Assembly: GCA_019694755.1 (NCBI GenBank)
Contig: JAIBBI010000043.1
Coordinates: 1-35,224 of the forward strand
Length of the DNA: 35,224 nt
Direction: 5' to 3'
Source of the DNA: Gemmataceae bacterium
GTDB lineage: Bacteria > Planctomycetota > Planctomycetia > Gemmatales > Gemmataceae
Positions 13-24,700 of the stretch are shown here, in pieces. How positions within the stretch are numbered: the first letter of the stretch is position 1; every line of letters begins with the position of its first letter. A program made the translations under genes and the position numbers. A model generated the notes under the pieces. It had not been told where the DNA came from and made no database searches. It saw nothing but the letters and a program-made list of their open reading frames with translations.

Positions 13-267
13 ATGGACTTCCTCACGTGGGCGATCCTGGGGTTGGTGGCAGGGATTCTCGCCAAGTGGCTCATGCCCGGCCCGGATAGCGGCGGCTTGA
101 TCATGACCATCCTGCTCGGCGTCGTCGGCGCATTGGTCGGCGGACGCATCGCCGGGTTCATGGGATGGGGCGGCGTCAACGGTCTCAACCTGCCGAGCCT
201 CGCGTTCGCCATCGGAGGTTCAATGGCAGTGCTGCTGATCTATCGCATTATCACTGGAAAGGTGTGA
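13..267 (+). CDS. GlsB/YeaQ/YmgE-family small membrane protein
   Basis: An 84-residue, very hydrophobic and glycine-rich protein with about three membrane segments (residues 5-20, 28-50 and 62-80). The start MDFLTWAILGLVAGILAKWL, the central GLIMTILLGVVGALVGG and the Gly/Gly-containing third helix are the pattern of the YeaQ/YmgE (transglycosylase-associated) family, and the length is normal. Members sit in the inner membrane and are often stress-induced; their molecular role is not known. Its stop lies three bases from the stop of the minus-strand GH3 gene, so the two are tail to tail with no room for a separate terminator. The upstream context lies outside the window. Confidence 0.85.
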   Translation: MDFLTWAILGLVAGILAKWLMPGPDSGGLIMTILLGVVGALVGGRIAGFMGWGGVNGLNLPSLAFAIGGSMAVLLIYRIITGKV

Positions 268-270
268 CAG

Positions 271-1950
271 TCAGCCGGCCGCGGCCAACACCGGCATGGT
301 CGTCCGGAAATTGACATCACCAATCAGACACGGGTGTTTGTACTGCTCGGCCGAACCGCCGCGGGTGCGCTGCCGATTCGCGTCCCATTCACGCCAAGTA
401 CCCGGCGGAAGCGGCTCGACCCGAACCGGACCCAACCGGCGGCTCGATCGCTTGGCCGCATACTCATCGTTGGCGATCGACAACGCGGAATCGAACGCCC
501 CGAGGAACTTCTCGACCGATGTCGCCGGCCACGCTCCCGCCTCGACAAAGAAGCCGTAGTAAGGCATCCGGTCGTCCCAGACCGGCGCGACTACATAGAC
601 CGGCAACGGCAGGCCGAGTTGCTCCGTCACCTGGGCGACGGCATGCGTCACCTGATACTCCGATAGCTTTTCACCGGTCAGACTGGCGATGTGGCTACCC
701 TTGCTCAGAAACTCAATCTGCGGCGTTTTCCCGTAGAAGCCGCGGACGCGTACCAGATCGTGCAGGTCGTACCGGTACAGCCCCGCGGCCGTCGTCGGCG
801 TCAGAAAGTACTGTTTGCCGTCTTCCAACTCGTGCGCCCCGAGGACGATCGGCTTCTCCGAGTCGATTTCGGCTTCGGGAATGAACTCGAAGTAATGGGT
901 GGTCACGTCCAGTACACCCGCCGGCGTGTCGTCGATCATCGGGATCGTCATTCGCCCCTCGCTGGCAATGAGCCCGAGGTCGCGCCGGAAGGTCTCGCCG
1001 TAGTACTGCTTCAACTGGCGGATGTACGGGCCGACGGATCCGCCCATCCACGTGCCGATCAGTAACCGCTCCGGGGGCCAAACATGGTACGGCCGAAGGA
1101 CTCCGTCTCGGGCCGACGCCCGTTCCAACTCGCGGGCCCGCTCCGGAGACTTCTTCAGGAACGGCATCAGCGTTTCGCGGACGCCGGCCGGCAACTTCAG
1201 GTCGCGGGACAAAGTTCCGTCGGCAATATCCCGCAACAGGTTTTCGGCACGTGCTTCGAGTACCCGGGCCAATGCAACCAGAGTGCTCGGGTTGGCGGCC
1301 GAGAGAACTCCCACCCTTCGGCACAGGCCCAGGCGCAACGCGATGTAATGCCTCGAGGCGGTATCGGTCACGGGGTTGGCGGCCGCGGGCATCACGTACA
1401 GGAAGCGAATGAACCGCTTCTGCAACGCGGTCGTCAGCCCTGAGAGGCTGCCGCAGGGTATCCCCGCCTCGGTGTGAAACTCCGCGGGGTCACCGGCCAT
1501 CTGAAGCATCGGACTGCACGAGATCGACTGGTGGTCGAGGAGCATCCGCAAGCCCCAACGGTTCCAGCCGCGTTTGTAGTCCTTCAGATACCGGTCCGTC
1601 ACCGGAATGGTTTTGCGGGCGGCCGTGGTCCCGCTCGTGAGTGCGAACATCCTCACCCGGCCGGCGATCAACGCTTCGGTCTCGCCCTTCCGCACGCGGG
1701 CAATGTACGGCTCGAGGTAGTCGTACGGGGCGAGCGGCACGTTTCTTCGATAATCTTCGACGGTCTTGATCGAGGAGAAGTGGTGATCGCGGGCGAAGGC
1801 CGTGCCGGCGTGCGTGGTCAGGATCTCGCGGAGACGGTCCTCCTGAGCCCTGCGGGGGTCCTTGCAAGCCGCGGCGAACTGCCAGAGGCGGACCCGGCTC
1901 GGGAATCCGACGATCTTGCCGAGCGCGAGCAATGCCAGTCGCGGGTTCAT
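271..1950 (-). CDS. GH3 auxin-responsive-promoter family protein (acyl-adenylate/amido synthetase fold)
   Basis: A 559-residue protein of typical GH3 length. Visible ATP/AMP motifs are TSGTTAARKTIP (about residues 105-116, the SSGTT-type phosphate loop) and YRYDLHDLVRVRGF (about 393-406), followed by a late conserved lysine region near the C-terminus (residues 520-545). Plant GH3 enzymes adenylate a carboxylic acid such as a jasmonate or auxin and conjugate it to an amino acid. Bacterial members are common in Planctomycetota and Bacteroidota, but their substrates are mostly unknown, so only an acyl-adenylating activity is inferred. No signal peptide is seen, so it is probably cytosolic. It follows prs on the same strand with a 60-base gap and may be the last gene of a speE-like/prs/GH3 transcript. 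The ribosome binding site before the ATG at 1950 is weak. Confidence 0.85.
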   Translation of the reverse strand: MNPRLALLALGKIVGFPSRVRLWQFAAACKDPRRAQEDRLREILTTHAGTAFARDHHFSSIKTVEDYRRNVPLAPYDYLEPYIARVRKGETEALIAGRVRMFALTSGTTAARKTIPVTDRYLKDYKRGWNRWGLRMLLDHQSISCSPMLQMAGDPAEFHTEAGIPCGSLSGLTTALQKRFIRFLYVMPAAANPVTDTASRHYIALRLGLCRRVGVLSAANPSTLVALARVLEARAENLLRDIADGTLSRDLKLPAGVRETLMPFLKKSPERARELERASARDGVLRPYHVWPPERLLIGTWMGGSVGPYIRQLKQYYGETFRRDLGLIASEGRMTIPMIDDTPAGVLDVTTHYFEFIPEAEIDSEKPIVLGAHELEDGKQYFLTPTTAAGLYRYDLHDLVRVRGFYGKTPQIEFLSKGSHIASLTGEKLSEYQVTHAVAQVTEQLGLPLPVYVVAPVWDDRMPYYGFFVEAGAWPATSVEKFLGAFDSALSIANDEYAAKRSSRRLGPVRVEPLPPGTWREWDANRQRTRGGSAEQYKHPCLIGDVNFRTTMPVLAAAG

Positions 1951-15601: not shown

Positions 15602-16534
15602 ATGTTCGCACGTCTGAGGCGTGGCTTCACGCTCATCGAGTTGCTCGTCGTCATTGCGATCATTGCCGTTCTGATCGGGCTGCTCCTCCCGGCCGTGCAA
15701 AAGGTCCGCGAAGCGGCCAACCGGCTCAAGTGTGCCAATAATCTCAAGCAACTCGGCCTGGCAGCCGTCAATTATCACGAGCAATACGGTTTCTTTCCCA
15801 TCAGCGTCAGCTTCGAGAGCGAAGGTTCCAGCCCCGCGCCGGCCAATAAGCTGACGGGCCGCGGTTGGATTCTGGAGGCCCTGCCCTTCTTCGAGCAGGA
15901 TTCGCTGGCCCAACGGTTCGAGCCGAGCCGGACGGGCTCGATGATCAGTGGCACCGGCGGGATCATGAACCCGTCGGTGCGACCCTTCCTGACGACGATA
16001 CTGCCGAACCTCGTCTGCCCGTCGGACAATTCACCGCGCGTGATCACGACGCAGTACCAGCTTTACGGGCAGCCGGTCGCGGTCACGAGTTACAAGGGCT
16101 GCATCGGCGACACCGACATGGGATACACTGTCTCGATCCATCAGGGGTCGTTGCCACCGACGTTCTTCACCAACAAGTGCAACGGGATCTTCTACCGCAA
16201 CAGCTATCAGGACCGGGTCTCGATCATTCACATCCAGGACGGCACGTCGAACACGTTTCTGATGGGCGAAGACGTGCCGCGGTACAACAACCACTCGGCC
16301 GCGTTCTACGCCAACGGCGACCACGCCAGTTGCTACGCCCCGCTGAACTACAAGCCACAGCCTCCCGACCCGAGCCTTTGGTGGAACGTGATGGGATTCC
16401 GCAGCGAGCATCCCGGCGGGGCCAATTTTTGCATGGCCGACGGGTCGGTGCAGTTCGTCGCCAACGGGATCAAGCAGAGCATTTATCGGGCGCTCAGCAC
16501 GAAAGCACGAGGCGAGAATGCCGAGCTACCCTGA
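15602..16534 (+). CDS. DUF1559 prepilin-like protein
   Basis: A 310-residue protein with a type IV prepilin leader: RRGFTLIELLVVIAIIAVLI (residues 7-26), with the G-F cleavage/methylation site followed by Glu at mature position 5, then the planctomycete-typical LLPAVQKVREAANRLKCANN and LKQLGLAAVNYHE. The C-terminal H-x-G-G-A-N-FCMADGSVQF (about 272-286) is the standard DUF1559 closing motif. Members are extremely abundant in Planctomycetota and are thought to be cell-surface pseudopilin-like proteins cleaved by a prepilin peptidase, but their role is unknown. It overlaps the following lipoprotein gene by 17 bases, the usual two-gene arrangement. Confidence 0.95.
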   Translation: MFARLRRGFTLIELLVVIAIIAVLIGLLLPAVQKVREAANRLKCANNLKQLGLAAVNYHEQYGFFPISVSFESEGSSPAPANKLTGRGWILEALPFFEQDSLAQRFEPSRTGSMISGTGGIMNPSVRPFLTTILPNLVCPSDNSPRVITTQYQLYGQPVAVTSYKGCIGDTDMGYTVSIHQGSLPPTFFTNKCNGIFYRNSYQDRVSIIHIQDGTSNTFLMGEDVPRYNNHSAAFYANGDHASCYAPLNYKPQPPDPSLWWNVMGFRSEHPGGANFCMADGSVQFVANGIKQSIYRALSTKARGENAELP

Positions 16535-16931
16535 CCTCCGGATGACAGTCTGGTCACTGTTGGTGGTGGTAATGGTCGGGTGCGGCGGGGGGCCGGTCCG
16601 GGTGACCGGGTTGGTCACGCTCGACGGCACGCCGGTGAATACCGGCACCGTGACGTTTTACCCGGTCGAGGACGGCACGCTGTATTACGGGACGATCACC
16701 GCGTCGGGCCGGTATGAGTTGGCGAGCGTCGACGGCCGGGTCGCGATCGAGCCGGGCGAATACGACGTGGCCGTGCGGATCGTCGAGGCGGTGCCGTCGC
16801 CGGACCCGAATCAGCCGCCACAACCCAAGCTCCGCTCGCCGGTGAAGTACGGCGACCAGAAAACGAGCGGCTTCCGATTCCGCATCCGCCCCGGCGCGAA
16901 TACGGCCGACCTGCCGATGAAGTCGAAGTAA
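16518..16931 (+). CDS. DUF1559-linked small lipoprotein (carboxypeptidase-regulatory-like fold)
   Basis: A 137-residue exported lipoprotein. A hydrophobic leader ends in the lipobox VMVGC (Cys22), followed by VRVTGLVTLDGTPVNTGTVTFYPVE, the standard opening of the small beta-sandwich domain found next to DUF1559 genes. A later YELASVDGRVAIEPGEYDV is also typical. The protein is probably anchored to a membrane through a diacylglyceryl cysteine. The ATG at 16518 has a GAGGCGAG tract directly upstream and overlaps the previous gene; an alternative ATG at 16542 (MTVWSLLVV) would also leave a full signal peptide. Confidence 0.85.
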   Translation: MPSYPDLRMTVWSLLVVVMVGCGGGPVRVTGLVTLDGTPVNTGTVTFYPVEDGTLYYGTITASGRYELASVDGRVAIEPGEYDVAVRIVEAVPSPDPNQPPQPKLRSPVKYGDQKTSGFRFRIRPGANTADLPMKSK

Positions 16932-16972
16932 CGCCCGAGTCGCACATCGCTGCTTTCTGTTAGAATCTCGCC

Positions 16973-18667
16973 ATGGTCTATGGCTGTCTGACGAGTCTGT
17001 TGCTTTGTGGCGGGCTGATCGCGCTGGTGCATCCGGTCGTGGTGCGTTCTGTGGACACGCCGGTCGCGTGGGGCGTGTCGGCGGGGCTGGCGTTTGCGAA
17101 CCTGCTGGCCGTCGGCGCACTCTGGAACGCGGCGCGGGCGTGGGGCAACGCCCGGCTGATCGGGCGGGCGGTAGCCGGGGAGTCGCCGGTGGAGGGGCGG
17201 CGGGCCGCCGTCGCCGGGCGCGTCGAGGCTATCGGCGCGACGATGCAGGCGCCGTTTTCCGGCAAGCCGTGCGTCTTGTACGAGATCGACATCTCCCATG
17301 ACTCCGAAGTCCCGCAGTCGGATGACGACTCGACCCGCACGGTGTCCGTCAAGGACTTCGGCGGGGTCGGCAAAGTACCGTTCGCCGTCCGAAACGACTT
17401 CGAGGCTGTCCGCATCTTCGGCATGCCGGACCTCGACGCCCTGCCCGCGCGTACCTTCGCCCGCCGGGCCGACCTCGCCCGGATCACCCGATTCGTCCGC
17501 GAAACCGAATGGCAGGACTACAGCGGACTGAACGTGTTGAAAGGTGCGAAGAGGCTGTGGTCGACGCTAAGTACGCAGGAGGAATCATTCGTCCAGCACT
17601 GGCGTCTGATCGCATTGGCCGACTGCGCCTGGCTCGAATCGGAAGACTCCGGGGCCGAGTTCACGCTGCCGACCTTCACGGAGAAGATCGTCGCGCCGGG
17701 CGATGTCGTGACCATCGTCGGCTATTGCGACGGCCAGCTCGGCGGCCTGACCTCCACGGTCACTCGCGACGGCAACATACTCACCATCTACACCGGCGAG
17801 CCCAGGGCGGCTCTCGCGAGACAGAGGCGGTCGTTTTTCAGCAATCTGATCGGCGGGATCCTCGGCCTGGCACTCATCAACGGAATCGCCACCGTCGGGA
17901 TGCAACTGTACCGCAACGCCCCCGAACGGCAGAAGGAACTCGCCACACGCTTATCGAAGGCCGTGGCCGACGGCGACCCGGCCGGGGTCGAGTCGGCCTT
18001 CGTCCGCGGGCTCAAGCCGGGGTCGCGCAAGGACTCGTCGGAGAGGTCCGCGCTCTGGGACGCGACTGATGCCACGATGGTCGCCCTGCTCGTCGAGCGC
18101 GGCATCGATCCGAACGCGACCGACAAAGAGGGTAATACGGCGCTGATGGCCGCGGCATCGAGTGGCCGGGCGGAGGTCGTCAAAGCCTTGCTGGCCGGCG
18201 GTGCGGACATCAACGCCCGCAATCCGAAGTCGCTCCGCACCGCGCTCGTCGCGGCGATCGGGGCCGAGCGGCACGAGTGCGTGGCGGTACTCCGGGCGGC
18301 GGGCGCGATCGATGACACGGTCAATGCCGGAAACGGTCGACCGATCACCCCGAACGATGAGCCGTACAGAATCTGCCGGGAGTACAACGCGGCCGTCCAC
18401 GGTAGAAACCTCCCGCGCATCCTCGAGCTATCCGCACCCGAGCGGGCGAGCTACCTGCACGACATCGACTGGGACGCGTGGCAATCCAGTCGGCCGATCG
18501 AACCGGTGACCATCACCGGCTACTGGCGCGACGATCATGCCACGGTGGCCATCGAGGGCGACACGCCGCGGAGCGGGCGGCAGACCTGGGTGATCCAGCT
18601 TTTCCGGTCCGGCGGGCAGTGGCGTATCGTCCGGGAGCGGTGGGTGCTGTCGGGCCGGGTGGATTAG
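16973..18667 (+). CDS. Membrane protein with GIDE-like domain and ankyrin repeats
   Basis: A 564-residue protein. Two N-terminal membrane helices (about 4-24 and 32-52) are followed by a region like the GIDE domain: VAGRVEAIGATMQAPFSGKPC then VLYEID, with PFAVRNDFEAVRIFG further on. A third helix lies at about 291-310. Ankyrin-type repeats follow (about 370-440), with GNTALMAAASSGRAEVVKAL and LLAGGADINARN. The last ~100 residues (EYNAAVHGRNLP… to VIQLFRSGGQWRIVRERWVL) look like a small alpha/beta domain of the SnoaL/DUF4878 kind. In eukaryotes the GIDE domain belongs to a mitochondrial E3 ligase with a RING finger, which is absent here. Function unknown; a membrane-tethered protein-interaction role is a guess. 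A TAGAAT hexamer ends six bases before the ATG. Confidence 0.7.
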   Translation: MVYGCLTSLLLCGGLIALVHPVVVRSVDTPVAWGVSAGLAFANLLAVGALWNAARAWGNARLIGRAVAGESPVEGRRAAVAGRVEAIGATMQAPFSGKPCVLYEIDISHDSEVPQSDDDSTRTVSVKDFGGVGKVPFAVRNDFEAVRIFGMPDLDALPARTFARRADLARITRFVRETEWQDYSGLNVLKGAKRLWSTLSTQEESFVQHWRLIALADCAWLESEDSGAEFTLPTFTEKIVAPGDVVTIVGYCDGQLGGLTSTVTRDGNILTIYTGEPRAALARQRRSFFSNLIGGILGLALINGIATVGMQLYRNAPERQKELATRLSKAVADGDPAGVESAFVRGLKPGSRKDSSERSALWDATDATMVALLVERGIDPNATDKEGNTALMAAASSGRAEVVKALLAGGADINARNPKSLRTALVAAIGAERHECVAVLRAAGAIDDTVNAGNGRPITPNDEPYRICREYNAAVHGRNLPRILELSAPERASYLHDIDWDAWQSSRPIEPVTITGYWRDDHATVAIEGDTPRSGRQTWVIQLFRSGGQWRIVRERWVLSGRVD

Positions 18668-18695
18668 CCGATGGCACGCCGGTTGCTAGGCGGGG

Positions 18696-18723
18696 TTGCA
18701 GGATCGGCCATGTTTCCTATATC
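18696..18723 (+). promoter_or_regulatory. Candidate promoter of the TPR/alpha-CTD gene
   Basis: TTGCAG (18696-18701) and TATATC (18718-18723) with a 16-base spacer, in the 103-base gap before the gene at 18771. The leader would be about 40 bases and contains a CCGGAGAG ribosome binding site ten bases from the ATG. Confidence 0.38.
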
Positions 18724-18770
18724 ATTCTTGATCCACTCCACCTTCGAGTGTCCCGGAGAGACTGCGTACC

Positions 18771-20102
18771 ATGAGCGAACCGCTCATCGATTTGAAAGCC
18801 CTGCTCGTCGAACACGAAGACTGCGACGCGGGCACCGTCCAAAAGCTGCGGAACGGCCTGGCCCAGGGCGGGACGCAACTCCGCAGCCTGCGCGAGGCGG
18901 CCGAGCAATTGCAGAAGAAGATCGACGCCGGCCAGGGCGCGAAGGCCAAGCTGCACCTGAAGCTGGGCATCGCGTACTACTTCCTCGGCTACATGGAGCG
19001 GGCGGTCGACAACCTGCAACATGCCGAGACCGCGCTCGGCAGCTTCTACCTCGGCAAGGCGCTCGCCGCCCGGCACAAGCCTGAAGAAGCCATGAAGGCG
19101 TTCGACAAGGCGGAGAAGGCCGGCTACACCGCGAGTCAGGTCAACCTCCAGCGCGTGGGCCTGCACCTGAAGCAGGGCGACGCCACGAAGGCCAAGCACC
19201 TGCTCGAAAAGCACAAAGACCTCGAAAGCCACTCGTCGGAATACCACTTCCAGACCGCGGGCGTCGCCCGGGCGGAAGGGCACCAGGCGGCCGCGATCAA
19301 GTCGCTGGAGCGGGCGGTCGAGCTCGACCCGTCGCACACCGGCGCGCTGTTCCAGCTCGGCTACCTCAACGACCTCGCCGGCAACGACGACGAGGCCATC
19401 GGCCTGTACGAGCGGTGCCTGAAGTACCCGCCGATCTCGATCGGCGCGGTGAACAACCTCGGCATCCTCTACGAAGACACGGGCAAGTACGACAAGGCGG
19501 CCGAGTGCTACGGCCGGATGCTGAAGGCCGACCCGAACGACGAGCGCGCCCGGCTGTTCCTGAAGGACGCCCAGGCCGGCCAGACGATGTACTACCACTC
19601 CGACGACGACACGCCGTCGAGCAAGTTTGCCCAGGTCCTCGACCTGAACGTCACCGATTTCGAGCTGTCGGTCCGGGCCCGCAACTGCCTGAAGAAGATG
19701 AACATCCGCACGCTCGGCGACCTCACCCGCGTGACGGAAGCGCAGCTGCTCGCCAGCAAGAACTTCGGCGAGACCTCGCTCGACGAGGTCCACGACCTCA
19801 TGAAGTCGAAGGGCCTGCGGGTCGGCCAGTCGATCAACGAGGGGCTGCCTTACGAGCCGCGGTACCGCCCGCAGCAGCAGCTTTCGCCCGAAGAGCAGGC
19901 CGTGCTGGGCAAGCCGGTCAGCGAGTTGAACCTGTCGGTGCGTGCCCGCAAGTGCATGAGCCGGCTCGGTATCGGCACGCTGGGCGAACTTTGCCAGCGC
20001 ACCGCCGACGAACTGCTCGAGGCCAAGAACTTCGGCGTGACCTCGCTCACCGAAGTCCGCGAAAAGCTCGTCACCTACGGCCTGAAGCTCCGCGGCGACT
20101 GA
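18771..20102 (+). CDS. TPR protein with two RNA polymerase alpha-CTD-like domains
   Basis: A 443-residue soluble protein. Residues 40-280 are tetratricopeptide repeats (LHLKLGIAYYFLGYMERAVD, ALFQLGYLNDLAGNDDEAIG and AVNNLGILYEDTGKYDKAAE are clear units). Two C-terminal domains match the RNA polymerase alpha C-terminal domain: residues about 288-355 (FELSVRARNCLKKMNIRTLG … NFGETSLDEV) and 379-443 (LNLSVRARKCMSRLGIGTLG … NFGVTSLTEV). Set against E. coli alpha, domain 1 keeps the DNA-contact residues R265 (R302), N268 (N305), C269 (C306), G296 (G333), S299 (S336) and E302 (E339); domain 2 keeps all of these but N268, which is Lys394. K298 is Thr in both. The protein is known in Planctomycetota by automatic annotation, but its function is unknown; binding to DNA or to polymerase partners is inferred. 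Confidence 0.85.
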   Translation: MSEPLIDLKALLVEHEDCDAGTVQKLRNGLAQGGTQLRSLREAAEQLQKKIDAGQGAKAKLHLKLGIAYYFLGYMERAVDNLQHAETALGSFYLGKALAARHKPEEAMKAFDKAEKAGYTASQVNLQRVGLHLKQGDATKAKHLLEKHKDLESHSSEYHFQTAGVARAEGHQAAAIKSLERAVELDPSHTGALFQLGYLNDLAGNDDEAIGLYERCLKYPPISIGAVNNLGILYEDTGKYDKAAECYGRMLKADPNDERARLFLKDAQAGQTMYYHSDDDTPSSKFAQVLDLNVTDFELSVRARNCLKKMNIRTLGDLTRVTEAQLLASKNFGETSLDEVHDLMKSKGLRVGQSINEGLPYEPRYRPQQQLSPEEQAVLGKPVSELNLSVRARKCMSRLGIGTLGELCQRTADELLEAKNFGVTSLTEVREKLVTYGLKLRGD

Positions 20103-20127
20103 GCCGGGCCTAGTTATCGATTTCTCC

Positions 20128-20176
20128 GGAAGGGGTGAGCGGGTGGAAGGGCTTCCTTCGCCTGCTCACCCCTTCC
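20128..20176 (+). promoter_or_regulatory. Long hairpin just upstream of tgt
   Basis: GGAAGGGGTGAGC (20128-20140) and GCTCACCCCTTCC (20164-20176) are perfect reverse complements, and pairing continues inward with wobbles and one mismatch to a small loop near 20151-20153, a stem of over 20 pairs. It lies between the TPR/alpha-CTD stop (20102) and the tgt start (20196). No T-run follows, so a plain intrinsic terminator is unlikely; a transcript-processing or regulatory hairpin, or a dispersed repeat, is possible. Confidence 0.6.
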
Positions 20177-20195
20177 CCTGTTCCCGGATGCGTCC

Positions 20196-21308
20196 ATGGC
20201 CGCGATTTCCTTCCAGGTCGAACACCAATGCGAGACCGCCCGGGCCGGCACGCTGACGACGCCGCACGGGATCGTCGAGACGCCGATCTTCATGCCCGTC
20301 GGTACGCAGGCCACGGTCAAAGGCCTGACCCCCGAGATGGTGGCCGGGGTCGGCGCGAGCATCATCCTCGGCAATACGTACCATCTCGCACTGCGCCCCG
20401 GTGCAGAGCGCGTGGCGTCGTTCGGCGGGTTGCACCAGTTCATGCACTGGGGCGGCTCGATCCTCACCGACTCGGGCGGCTTCCAGGTCTACTCGCTCGC
20501 ACACCAGCGCAAGATCACCGATCACGGCGCGACCTTCCGCTCGCACATCGATGGGCGACTGCTCGAACTCACCCCCGAGTCGGCGACGCAGATTCAGGAG
20601 CAACTCGGCAGCGACATCGCCATGTGCCTCGACGAGTGCCCCCCGGCCCAGGCGGCCGGCGACGTCATGGAGCGGGCGGTCAATCGCAGCATTTTGTGGG
20701 CCGGGCGCTGCAAGGCGGCGCACACCCGGCCTGATCAGGCGCAGTTCGGCATCGTGCAGGGCGGCCTCGACATCGACCTGCGCCGCAAATGCGCCGAGCC
20801 GCTGGTGGACCTCGACTTCCCGGGCTACGCGCTCGGCGGGTTCAGCGTGGGCGAAGCGCCTGAGCAGATGCACGCGGCCCTGCCCGCCAGCGCGGCCCTG
20901 CTGCCGATTGGGAAGCCGCGGTACCTGATGGGCGTCGGCCGGCCGCTCGACCTGCTCGTGGGCGTGGCCGCGGGCATCGACATGTTCGATTGCGTGCTGC
21001 CGACCCGCAACGGCCGGAACGCCCACGCCCTGACCCACTTCGGCGTCGTGAAACTGCGAAACGCCCGGCACGCAGCCGACCCCGGCCCGCTCGACGCGGC
21101 CTGCGGGTGCTATACCTGTACAAACTTCTCCCGCGGCTATCTGCATCACCTGTTCGCGGCCAGCGAGATGCTGGGCCCGACGCTGGTGAGCCTCCACAAC
21201 ATCGCTTACTACTTGGACTTGATGCGAAACGCCCGCGCTGCGATCATCGCCGGGCGGTATCCGGACTACGTCGCCAATTGTGTGGCCCGATGGGCCGAAA
21301 AAGCATAG
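20196..21308 (+). CDS. tgt: tRNA-guanine(34) transglycosylase
   Basis: A 370-residue enzyme that exchanges guanine for a 7-deazaguanine (preQ1) at the wobble position of tRNAs with GUN anticodons, toward queuosine. Signatures: TPIFMPVGTQATVKGLTPE, ILGNTYHL, ILTDSGGFQVYSL (with the catalytic-pocket Asp), the nucleophile D265 in GIDMFDCVLPTRNGRNA, and the zinc site C303, C305, C308 and H334. Each corresponds by spacing to Z. mobilis D280 and C318/C320/C323/H349. Length normal. The gene is followed 32 bases later by yajC and then secDF, the conserved tgt-yajC-secD-secF order of many bacteria. Confidence 0.97.
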   Translation: MAAISFQVEHQCETARAGTLTTPHGIVETPIFMPVGTQATVKGLTPEMVAGVGASIILGNTYHLALRPGAERVASFGGLHQFMHWGGSILTDSGGFQVYSLAHQRKITDHGATFRSHIDGRLLELTPESATQIQEQLGSDIAMCLDECPPAQAAGDVMERAVNRSILWAGRCKAAHTRPDQAQFGIVQGGLDIDLRRKCAEPLVDLDFPGYALGGFSVGEAPEQMHAALPASAALLPIGKPRYLMGVGRPLDLLVGVAAGIDMFDCVLPTRNGRNAHALTHFGVVKLRNARHAADPGPLDAACGCYTCTNFSRGYLHHLFAASEMLGPTLVSLHNIAYYLDLMRNARAAIIAGRYPDYVANCVARWAEKA

Positions 21309-21340
21309 AATTCTCTCTTTGCCGAAGGTAAGGACACGCA

Positions 21341-21700
21341 GTGATTGCCGCCGAATTGACCAGTTTCCTGCTCGCCGACGCCGATCCCGCCCGCCCGGCC
21401 GGGTCCGGTCTCGACACGTTCATCTTCCTCGTCGCCCCCCTGCTTTTGTTCCTGGTGCTGATTGTCCTGCCGATGCGGCGCGAGTCGCGCGTCCGTAAGG
21501 ACATGCTGGCCGCGCTCAAAAAGGGCGACCGCGTGCTGGTGAACGGCTTTCTGATCGGCACGGTGGTGCAACTGGGCAAGGGCGAAGACGACGTGCAGGT
21601 GAAAGTCGACGACAACGGTGCGACCAAGATCCGCGTGCTCCGCGGCAGCATCACCCGCATTCTGAAATCCGAAGACGCGCCCGCCAAGGATGGGGCCTGA
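21341..21700 (+). CDS. yajC: Preprotein translocase accessory subunit YajC
   Basis: A 119-residue protein starting at GTG with TAAGGA upstream. A single membrane helix (about 28-45, FIFLVAPLLLFLVLIVLPM) is followed by the family signature PMRRESRVRKDMLAALKKGD and RVLVNGFLIGTVVQL, and a small cytosolic domain. The N-terminal periplasmic part is longer than in E. coli. YajC associates with SecDF at the SecYEG translocon. It lies between tgt and secDF and its stop overlaps the open upstream end of the secDF frame. A TAGAAT hexamer at 21306-21311 overlaps the tgt stop and could mark an internal promoter. Confidence 0.95.
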   Translation: MIAAELTSFLLADADPARPAGSGLDTFIFLVAPLLLFLVLIVLPMRRESRVRKDMLAALKKGDRVLVNGFLIGTVVQLGKGEDDVQVKVDDNGATKIRVLRGSITRILKSEDAPAKDGA

Positions 21701-21725
21701 CCTCTTCTCAGGAACGGTATCGATC

Positions 21726-24700
21726 ATGAACTATGAAGTCTGGCAGAGCCTGTTGATCGTCGCCGCGGTCGTCGCGGTGACCTACGGACTGTATTGGGCG
21801 TGCAGTCGGTTCATGCGCCCGTTCCACTACCGCGCCTTTCTCTGCCTGCTGGCCGTGCTGGTCAGCGGCTGGGTCGTGGCCGGGGCAGGCCGGAAGTACA
21901 CCCGCGGCGAAGGCGGGTTCAAGCTCGGCGTCGACCTCATCGGCGGCACCATCCTTGTCTACGAAGTAGACGTCGAGAAGCTGAAAGACACGGCCGGCGA
22001 AGACGCCCTCGCCAAGCTCGAGCCGGCCAAGATGGTCGAGTTCCTCAAGCGCCGCATCGACCCCAACGACCTTTACAACGTCACCATCCGCCCCGTCGGC
22101 GGCAACACCCGCTACGAGATCATCCTGCCCACCGGCGGCTCGCACCAGGCCGTCATCAAGCAGCAGGCGTGGGACGCGCTGCTCGAGGCAGTCCGCAGCA
22201 ATCCCGAGTGGAAGGCCCCTCTGGCCGGCGTCGACCTCAACGTCGACCGCGACCGCTCCCGCGACCTCGGCTTCCGCATCCGCACCGCCCTCGACAAGAA
22301 AGTCTGGACCGACGTCCTCGCCAAGTTCCAGACGCAGTTCGCGGACAAGGTGAAGGACGTGAAACTCGACGGTTTGGCCGTCGGCAACATCGACGGCGTC
22401 GCCGAGGCCGTGAAGGCCACCGGCCTGACCGCCGACGAGGTGAAGAAGTTCTTCGTCGGCGCGTACAAGCCGATCGCAGAGAAGGATGTCAACGATTTCA
22501 TCGCGGCCAACTACAGCTTCAGCTCGACCGGCAACCGCAAGGACTTCTCCGCCGAGCTGGTCGAAGAGACCAAGTCGCTGATCGCCCGGCAGGGGAGCCT
22601 CGAGTTCCGCATCGCGGCCAACGGCACCGACGACCGCCCGGGCATCGACGCGGCCCGGAAGTTCATGGAAGACCCGAAGAACAAGGCCGAACTCGACTCC
22701 CGCGCCCGTCGGGGCTTTGCCCCGCCGCCGGTCGCCGCTCAGGCCGACGACCCGAACAAGTACTCGTACATGTGGGTGGAACTCGACAAGACCGAGCGGA
22801 TGTCGCTGGGCCTTTCGAACGCCATGTCCGGCGTGTCCGACCGGTGGAAGAAGCTGGCCCAGGCCCGGACCGACGGCAAGATCGTCGTCGACTCGTTCCC
22901 GCACAACGACACCAAGGGCGGACGGTCGGGCGAAGCCTCGTTCGTCTTCTACAGCCGGCCGTGCCTCAACGAAAAGCTCACCGAAGAAGAGCGGGCCAAG
23001 AAGCAGTTCGAGTACTTCATGCTGCTCCGCGACCCGATCCGCGACTCGGCCGGGAAGCCGCAGGCGATCACCGGCGAACGCCTCCGCCGGGCGGAAGTCA
23101 ACGACTTCGATCAGGCCGTCAGCTTCGACTTCGATTCCGAAGGCGGCCGGATGTTCGGCAACCTGACCAGCTCCAACGTCCCCACGCCCCCCGGTCAGCA
23201 GGTCAACCTGACTTTCCGCCACCTCGCTATCGTGCTCGACGGCATGATCGTCTCGGCCCCGTTCCTGTCGACCCGCATCGACAACTCGGGCCAGATTCAG
23301 ATGAGCGGTTCACCCCGCGAAGACCGCGTCCGCCTCGCCAAGATCCTCCGCTCGGGTGCCCTGCCCGCCCCGATCAAGCCGATCCCCGTCAGCGAGAGCA
23401 CCATCGGTGCCACGCTCGGCGGCGACACGATCTTCAAGGGCCTGCTCTCGGTCGGCATCGCGTTCGCCGCGGTGCTCGTGTTCATGGTCTTCTACTACCA
23501 GTTCGCCGGCTGCGTTGCCTGCGTCGCGCTGCTGGCCAACCTGCTGCTCACCGTCGCCTTCATGGTGTTCGTGAATGCCACTTTCACGCTGCCGGGCCTC
23601 GCGGGCCTCGTGCTCATGCTCGGCATGGCGGTCGACGCCAACGTGCTGATCTACGAGCGCATCCGCGAAGAACGCGAACGCGGGGCTGGCCTGACCGTCG
23701 CCCTGCGGAACGGCTACGACCGGGCGTTCCCCACGATCATCGACACCCACCTGACAAGCTTCTTCACCGCCGTCGTGCTTTATGCCGTCGGCAACGATCA
23801 GCTCCGCGGCTTCGGCATCTCGCTGGCCGCCGGCCTCGTCATCAGCCTGTTCACCTCGCTGTACATGACCCGGCTGCTGTTCGACGTCTGGCAGTACAAG
23901 GGCTGGCTCAAGAACCTCTCGATGCGGAAGTTCTTCACGAAGACGAACATCGACTTCATGAGCATACGCTACTACTGGTTCACCGCCACCATCATCCTGA
24001 CCGTGGTAGGCCTGTCACTGTTCCTTCTCCGCGGATCGCAGGGCCTGAATGTCGATTTCGTCGGCGGCACGGCCTACGGCGGCCAGCTTAAGGAAGGCCA
24101 GGCCCGGACCATCGGCGAACTGCGCGAACTCCTGAGCGCCCAGGGCGATCGCCTCGCCGTCGCTCAGGCCACCCAGATCGACGACGCGGGCAAGGTGTTC
24201 CGGATCACCTACAAGAACTTCCCCGACCCGCAGCCGCAGGTCGAGTTTGTCGAGCCCGTCGACGGCACGGCCGCGACGAAGGAAGCCCGCGAAAAGACCG
24301 TCGCCGAGCGGGCCAAGCTGCTCCCCGACTGGTCGGTCGAGCAGACGTTTGTCGCCGGCGACACGGGCAACAAGGCGGGGGCCAGCCGGTTCTTCACCGT
24401 CCGCACCACCGAAAAGGACGCTGACCTCGTGCAGGTCAACGTCGACCGACTGCTTTCCGAAGTGAAGGACGGCAAGCTTTCGTCATTGCTGAAGAGCATC
24501 ACGCTCGACAAGTATGACGTGAAGGGCAAGCAAGTCTCGCTCGAGTTCAGCGACTACGCCAGCCCGGGCTACCTGAAGCTGTTCCTGGCCCGCGAGTTCA
24601 CGCTCGGCGGATTCGGTCCGCAGTCCTTCGACCTGCGTGGCGAAGGCAAAGGCCAGGAGAGCCGCTACAAGAACATGACGCTCGAGATCACGACCTCGGC

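What the first reader, a model, noticed from the sequence alone, without database searches (positions are those of the whole stretch)
18771..20102. TPR protein with two RNA polymerase alpha-CTD domains that retain DNA-contact residues
Both C-terminal domains align with E. coli alpha-CTD, and domain 1 keeps R265, N268, C269, G296, S299 and E302 equivalents, the residues known to touch the minor groove of UP elements. Both lack K298 (Thr). A free protein carrying two alpha-CTDs plus a protein-binding TPR scaffold could act in trans as an UP-element reader, an anti-activator competing for alpha contacts, or a bridge to translation/export. It sits immediately before tgt-yajC-secDF. No experimentally described function is known to me.
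Basis: partly seen in the sequence, partly recalled or inferred. Interest (0 to 1): 0.65.

Follow-up and report, generated by a model that had tools for sequence, protein, structure and literature searches.

The report
Free-standing protein with two polymerase DNA-reading domains
Sampled bacteria of the phylum Planctomycetota nearly all carry a separate protein in which a protein-binding scaffold is joined to two copies of the DNA-reading domain of RNA polymerase; the first copy has kept its DNA-contacting residues without change across the phylum, so it is probably an undescribed helper of gene transcription.

Summary
ORF 18771-20102 (+) is a 443-aa protein with about six to seven TPR hairpins and two bona fide RNA polymerase alpha-CTDs (Pfam PF03118, 140 bits). 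A predicted model (pLDDT 90) superposes both on E. coli alpha-CTD (best pairs about 0.7-1.1 A), with the contact residues on the helix-hairpin-helix surface.

It is much more than one odd gene. A homologue was found in 286 of 294 sampled Planctomycetota genomes and in all 155 of good quality. All 117 homologues read here carry two CTDs. CTD1 and CTD2 form separate sister clades, so one ancestral duplication preceded the phylum's radiation. CTD1 is invariant at R265, N268, C269, N294, G296, S299, E302 and E261; CTD2 keeps most of these, but N268 is Lys/Arg. Among divergent genomes CTD1 is more conserved than RpoA's own alpha-CTD (66% vs 52%). The missing K298 means nothing: every planctomycetal RpoA examined also has Thr there.

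Best explanation: a trans-acting, RNAP-independent alpha-CTD carrier that reads A/T-type minor grooves (and perhaps sigma) at promoters, with TPR docking to a partner. DNA or RNAP binding was not tested. The tgt-yajC-secDF linkage was found in only about half of the loci. I found no described function.

The parts
18771..20102 (+). gene for the 443-aa TPR + two alpha-CTD protein
   Evidence: ORF list and translation; Pfam; homologues in 286/294 Planctomycetota genomes
18939..19592 (+). TPR superhelix, residues about 57-274; residues 154-274 are the conserved part
   Evidence: Pfam TPR models, predicted helices with pLDDT about 90-97, conservation profile, VIA-align Z 19.2 to TPR protein TTC0263, 182 residues, rmsd 4.3
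19629..19805 (+). alpha-CTD 1 (R302, N305, C306, N331, G333, S336, E339 = E. coli R265, N268, C269, N294, G296, S299, E302; D296/E298 = D259/E261)
   Evidence: PF03118 hit 74.3 bits; structure; residue tables
19884..20069 (+). alpha-CTD 2 (R391, K394, C395, N420, G422, S425, E428)
   Evidence: PF03118 hit 74.1 bits; structure; residue tables
20128..20176 (+). strong GC-rich hairpin between the stop codon and tgt, no T-run; unique in the genome; role unknown
   Evidence: fold -50.9 kcal/mol for 20103-20195, z -4.7; only itself and its own complement found in the genome; not listed by the terminator scan
20196..21308 (+). tgt (queuine tRNA-ribosyltransferase), downstream neighbour
   Evidence: Pfam TGT 502.5 bits
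21341..21700 (+). yajC, downstream neighbour
   Evidence: Pfam YajC 56.5 bits
21690..25415 (+). fused secDF, downstream neighbour
   Evidence: Pfam SecD_SecF_C, two stretches, and SecDF_P1_head

Best explanation
[quoted passage not shown] SHOWN here: two true alpha-CTD sequences (PF03118) on a TPR scaffold; predicted alpha-CTD folds with DNA-contact residues in register; near-universal presence in the sampled phylum, with the two-CTD architecture in all 117 homologues read; one ancient duplication; strong purifying selection on CTD1's DNA-contact set. INFERRED: CTD1 (and, with an altered basic contact at 268, CTD2) inserts its Arg into narrow, A/T-type minor grooves upstream of promoters, like the UP-element contact of RNAP, but in trans; the retained acidic 261 determinant may also touch region 4 of the housekeeping sigma, which keeps the R603 equivalent (HPVRS); the conserved C-terminal TPRs (residues 154-274) hold a protein partner, RNAP itself or a factor, so that extra alpha-CTDs are delivered to chosen promoters and modulate their activity. 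The sign (activation or competition) is unknown.
For: PF03118 twice, and RpoA the only other CTD gene of the genome. Homologue at E<=1e-10 in 286/294 phylum genomes and 155/155 good ones (a few of the weakest matches may be RpoA or TPR alone). Exactly three PF03118 domains (one RpoA + two) in 51 of 59 high-completeness genomes. CTD1 at or near 100% at R265, N268, C269, N294, G296, T298, S299, E302, E261; CTD2 R265 and E302 100%, N294, G296 and S299 98%, K/R at 268 in 96%. Thermus alpha-CTD, which lacks UP response and whose DNA-interacting residues are not conserved (PMC5511352), has H268, S269 and G294 (sequence), so the fold alone does not force these residues. Divergent-pair identity CTD1 66% vs RpoA-CTD 52%. 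Structure: pLDDT 90.4 and 82.6; rmsd about 0.7 A over 63-64 residues to 3n97 and 1lb2, alpha-CTD bound to DNA; VIA Z 12-13.5, ungapped register 98..164 = 250..316. R265 and N294 enter the minor groove in the E. coli rrnBP1 complex (PMC7822876). Sister CTD1/CTD2 clades, joint branch 99/91. Sigma R603 equivalent kept.
Against: No direct evidence of DNA or RNAP binding. Basic backbone contacts K291 and K298 (PMC7822876) are absent (mostly Ser/Ala and Thr in CTD1), though planctomycetal RpoA lacks K298 too. CTD2 has lost N268. CTD2 is absent in one genus and degenerate in another genome, so a paired-CTD mechanism is not obligatory. Gene context points to housekeeping functions, not to a regulator. 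Conservation of an alpha-CTD could also reflect protein-protein contacts.
Confidence: 0.45

Rival explanations
1. Alpha-CTD decoy or adaptor: the CTDs are used mainly as protein-interaction modules that bind activators, NusA or sigma in competition with RpoA, tuning alpha-dependent activation; DNA contact is secondary.
For: D259 93% and E261 100% in CTD1; E286 also 100%, part of the activator-facing surface; in 12 of 19 matched RpoAs E261 is Asn. The TPR scaffold suits protein assembly.
Against: The DNA-contact set is as invariant as, or more invariant than, the other determinants; positions 287, 288 and 317 of the activator-contact surface vary freely.
Confidence: 0.25
2. Nucleoid-associated or architectural protein: tandem alpha-CTDs bind A/T-rich minor grooves across the chromosome, and the TPR multimerises or bridges them; promoters are not the main target.
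For: Two tandem minor-groove readers on a linker of nearly constant length (37-39 residues between G352 and R391 equivalents in 42 of 62 members); near-universal presence in the sampled phylum; conserved R267 next to the contact set in both CTDs (98% and 94%) but rare in the RpoAs read.
Against: The 261 determinant need not be kept for this; a genus with one CTD exists; no evidence of oligomerisation.
Confidence: 0.15
3. A role in translation, tRNA modification or secretion: the HhH modules bind RNA or ribosome and the TPR binds Sec or Tgt factors, matching the tgt-yajC-secDF neighbourhood.
For: tgt lies within 2 kb downstream in 35 of 69 classifiable named loci, in Gemmataceae/Isosphaeraceae and Phycisphaerae, with yajC and secDF usually following.
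Against: In 28 of the 69 loci no tgt lies within the 3 kb or more read downstream; yajC-secDF next to tgt is a generic bacterial cluster; RNA binding would not explain conservation of the exact minor-groove set.
Confidence: 0.1
4. Relic: a duplicated rpoA fragment fused to TPRs with no alpha-CTD-specific function.
For: CTD2 loss or erosion in a few genomes.
Against: Near-universal retention in the sampled phylum and invariant residues in CTD1.
Confidence: 0.03

Closest known systems
RNA polymerase alpha subunit (RpoA) C-terminal domain, Pfam PF03118
   Same: Same domain family and predicted fold (about 0.7 A), same DNA-contact residues in CTD1, T298 shared with planctomycetal RpoA
   Different: No alpha-NTD, two CTDs in tandem, TPR scaffold, family-specific R267, M273 (CTD1)/L273 (CTD2) and N268->K/R in CTD2
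Bacterial TPR scaffolds (TTC0263, MamA and similar)
   Same: Superhelix of TPR hairpins
   Different: The TPR entries listed do not carry alpha-CTDs; conserved H189, F194, D201, E235, D236, D266 are a pattern of this family
Small stand-alone alpha-CTD-like proteins of some Planctomycetota (L146, L147) and NCBIfam PRK07758
   Same: Free alpha-CTD-like domains outside RpoA
   Different: Single domain, no TPR; L146/L147 fall in a separate clade
Spx and AfsR/SARP type regulators (1z3e, 8hvr)
   Same: Work at or through alpha-CTD
   Different: They bind alpha-CTD; this protein carries alpha-CTDs itself

Membership tests
RNA_pol_A_CTD domain (PF03118) | HMM score above the gathering threshold | tested here: met
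   140.3 bits in two stretches against 23.8; all 62 aligned members match
RNA_pol_A_CTD domain (PF03118) | alpha-CTD fold with contact residues on the HhH surface | tested here: met
   Foldseek 0.7 A to 3n97/1lb2; VIA-align Z 12-13.5 for both domains, in register
RNA_pol_A_CTD domain (PF03118) | UP-element contact residues R265, N268, C269, N294, G296, K298, S299, E302 | tested here: inconclusive
   CTD1 has all but K298 (Thr, as in every planctomycetal RpoA read); CTD2 also lacks N268 (Lys)
RNA_pol_A_CTD domain (PF03118) | Binds A/T-rich DNA minor groove | not testable with these tools
   Needs EMSA or ChIP
RNA polymerase alpha subunit (RpoA) | alpha-NTD and full-length equivalog score | tested here: not met
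   No NTD in the Pfam result; NCBIfam rpoA models score 132.9 and 127.3 against cut-offs 302 and 227.8; the true rpoA is at G000:C133
TPR protein | Tandem 34-residue helix-turn-helix repeats | tested here: met
   TPR models above cut-off, predicted helices, TPR structures as top fold matches
Phylum-wide conserved family of Planctomycetota | Present as an orthologue across the phylum | tested here: met
   286/294 genomes, 155/155 good ones; clades of CTD1 and CTD2
Phylum-wide conserved family of Planctomycetota | Absent outside the phylum | not tested
   The genome search cannot be centred outside the phylum; the one scan of 84,980 species returned planctomycetal loci among its best 80 (two MAG titles name other groups), but only exact peptide patterns were used

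The most novel reading that the evidence does not exclude
A phylum-wide auxiliary RNA polymerase factor: the TPR domain docks on RNAP or sigma and supplies two additional alpha-CTDs in trans, so that planctomycetal promoters are read by more than the two alpha-CTDs of the core enzyme, a mode of promoter recognition not described in other bacteria to my knowledge.
Probability: 0.2. Interest if true: 0.85.

Novelty: new variant of a known kind. Interest (0 to 1): 0.62.

Why it matters
Alpha-CTD is the main upstream-DNA and activator contact of bacterial RNA polymerase, and textbook knowledge places it at the end of the alpha subunit. A near-universal, vertically inherited planctomycetal protein that carries two alpha-CTDs apart from the polymerase, with a first copy conserved at least as strictly as RpoA's own, suggests that a whole phylum adds a layer to promoter recognition. 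Genetics exist for one member, Planctopirus limnophila (transposon essentiality map, PMC10632474), so the role is directly testable.

Tried and rejected
Function papers: four searches for alpha-CTD/TPR/planctomycete terms, one for PF03118 and one for planctomycete UP elements gave nothing on this family; only CC-licensed PMC papers are held. The PVC signature-protein paper mentions neither RpoA nor TPR in its main text. The P. limnophila essentiality paper reports RNAP core genes essential, but its gene table is in a supplement that cannot be opened here, so this gene's essentiality is unknown to me. Plasmid collection: only RpoA-type and generic TPR matches among those listed, none covering 80% of the protein. 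Whole-model fold searches listed TPR proteins only, so the CTD pair was folded alone. No sigma-70-like promoter in 18500-21800, no Rfam match in the window. A 'loss of K298' argument was rejected because RpoA of the phylum lacks it too. First attempt at family search for flanking genes failed on a wrong frame.

Full report
WHAT IS THERE. The ORF at 18771-20102 (+) is a 443-aa protein. Pfam finds RNA_pol_A_CTD twice (1.6e-41, 140.3 bits, cut-off 23.8) behind a stretch of TPRs. The genome (5.6 Mb, 335 contigs) holds three PF03118 domains: one in the true rpoA (C133) and the two here; a profile of the family finds no second copy. tgt, yajC and secDF follow.

STRUCTURE. AlphaFold2 with 62 homologues gives mean pLDDT 90.4. 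The C-terminal 165 residues folded alone (pLDDT 82.6) match DNA-bound E. coli alpha-CTD at about 0.7 A over 63-64 residues (3n97, 1lb2). VIA-align gives Z 12-13.5 for each of the two domains, for instance model 98..164 on E. coli 250..316 at 1.1 A. That register puts R391, K394, C395, N420, G422, S425 and E428 at E. coli 265, 268, 269, 294, 296, 299 and 302; in CTD1 the set is R302, N305, C306, N331, G333, S336 and E339.

DISTRIBUTION. A match at E<=1e-10 occurs in 286 of 294 genomes sampled across the phylum and in 155 of 155 that are at least 90% complete. Nearly all are strong, full-length or near full-length matches (mostly E 1e-40 to 1e-115); a few weak ones may be RpoA or TPR alone. All 117 homologues whose DNA was read through the domain search have exactly two CTDs (a few of the 117 rows are the same gene or near-copies). 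In 59 genomes of high completeness 51 have exactly three PF03118 domains, as expected from RpoA plus this protein. Exceptions: one genus keeps CTD1 only (L144, L145) and one genome has an eroded CTD2 (L152). Whether the family exists outside Planctomycetota could not be tested.

ORIGIN. A tree of 61 columns puts 20 CTD1s and 20 CTD2s in two sister clades (CTD1 91/97, CTD2 97/92, joint 99/91) apart from RpoA. The sampled homologues span several classes, so one duplication before the phylum's radiation followed by vertical descent is the simplest reading. The tree has few columns and the deeper root is unresolved.

RESIDUES. CTD1 is invariant or nearly so at E261, R265, N268, C269, K293, N294, F295, G296, T298, S299 and E302. 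CTD2 keeps R265 and E302 in 100%, N294, G296 and S299 in 98%, and replaces N268 by K (83%) or R (13%). Both carry R267 (98% and 94%), where RpoA has mostly Ser or Thr. T298 is found in all 44 planctomycetal RpoA CTD rows inspected (25 and 19, partly the same genomes), so the lack of K298 is a lineage trait. In 19 genomes with all three domains compared, 61 divergent pairs average 66% identity in CTD1, 56% in CTD2 and 52% in RpoA-CTD; over all 171 pairs CTD1 and RpoA are equal (71%). Thermus alpha-CTD, reported not to respond to an UP element and not to conserve the DNA-interacting residues (PMC5511352), reads H268, S269 and G294 (alignment by eye of the sequence), so the fold does not by itself impose the set. 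In the E. coli rrnBP1 complex R265 and N294 enter the minor groove and K291/K298 touch phosphates (PMC7822876). The first pair is kept here and the second is not.

PARTNER SURFACES. D259 (93%) and E261 (100%), the sigma-contact determinant of E. coli (PMC5511352), are kept in CTD1, and the housekeeping sigma of this genome keeps the R603 equivalent (KLQHPVRS, register set by eye). TPR residues 154-274 are better conserved than the N-terminal part, with 22 of 121 positions at 90% or more; some members lack the N-terminal TPRs (L106, 370 aa; L150, 346 aa). The partner is unknown.

NEIGHBOURHOOD. Of 80 named loci 69 can be judged: tgt lies within 2 kb downstream on the same strand in 35, elsewhere in the locus in 6, and in 28 not within the 3 kb or more available (L076, with tgt matching from 4 bp before the end of the frame, counted as adjacent). 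In many Phycisphaerae a SpoIID gene lies between. In 25 loci of the Gemmataceae group an RlmL-like methyltransferase gene is directly divergent. The link to tgt-yajC-secDF is old but not obligatory and says little about function.

MECHANISM. I favour an auxiliary alpha-CTD carrier acting at promoters in trans (0.45): the most strictly conserved part across the phylum is what an alpha-CTD needs to read a minor groove and touch sigma. A protein-interaction decoy (0.25), a nucleoid protein (0.15) and a translation/secretion role (0.1) remain. No step of binding or regulation was shown.

NOVELTY. Both domain types are known and automatic annotation would name them; I found no report on the combination, within an open-access library only. 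I rate it a new variant of a known kind, of fairly high interest because it is near-universal in the sampled phylum and directly testable.

Noticed in passing
window 20128-20176: Very stable GC-rich hairpin (-50.9 kcal/mol for 20103-20195, z -4.7) between the TPR/alpha-CTD gene and tgt, without a T-run and unique in the genome; a terminator, attenuator or processing site is possible.
   Followed up: partly
L146 1206-1533 (+); L147 1535-2000 (-): Small stand-alone alpha-CTD-like proteins (ORFs of 109 and 155 aa, motif AEIGLxVRTTNCLE...NFGEKTLDEV) in two same-class genomes, in a clade apart from RpoA and from CTD1/CTD2.
   Followed up: partly
L144 6060-7221 (-); L145 4383-5559 (-); L152 6599-8075 (+): In one genus CTD2 is gone and only CTD1 remains; in another genome CTD2 has lost its KNFG motif. 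Natural tests of which domain matters.
   Followed up: partly
L109 9318-10451, also L083, L087, L089, L097: A SpoIID-domain gene lies between the TPR/alpha-CTD gene and tgt in many Phycisphaerae; a similar ORF lies downstream in some other genomes (L018, L019, L032).
   Followed up: partly
window 15602-18667: DUF1559 protein, a short lipoprotein-like ORF and an ankyrin-repeat membrane protein sit between the RlmL-like gene and the TPR/alpha-CTD gene; in 25 related loci these two genes are directly divergent, so this looks like an insertion in this lineage.
   Followed up: partly
L069, L065: Gemmataceae-type loci filed under MAGs titled Bacteroidales and Candidatus Kuenenia; probably misbinned or mislabelled contigs.
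   Followed up: no
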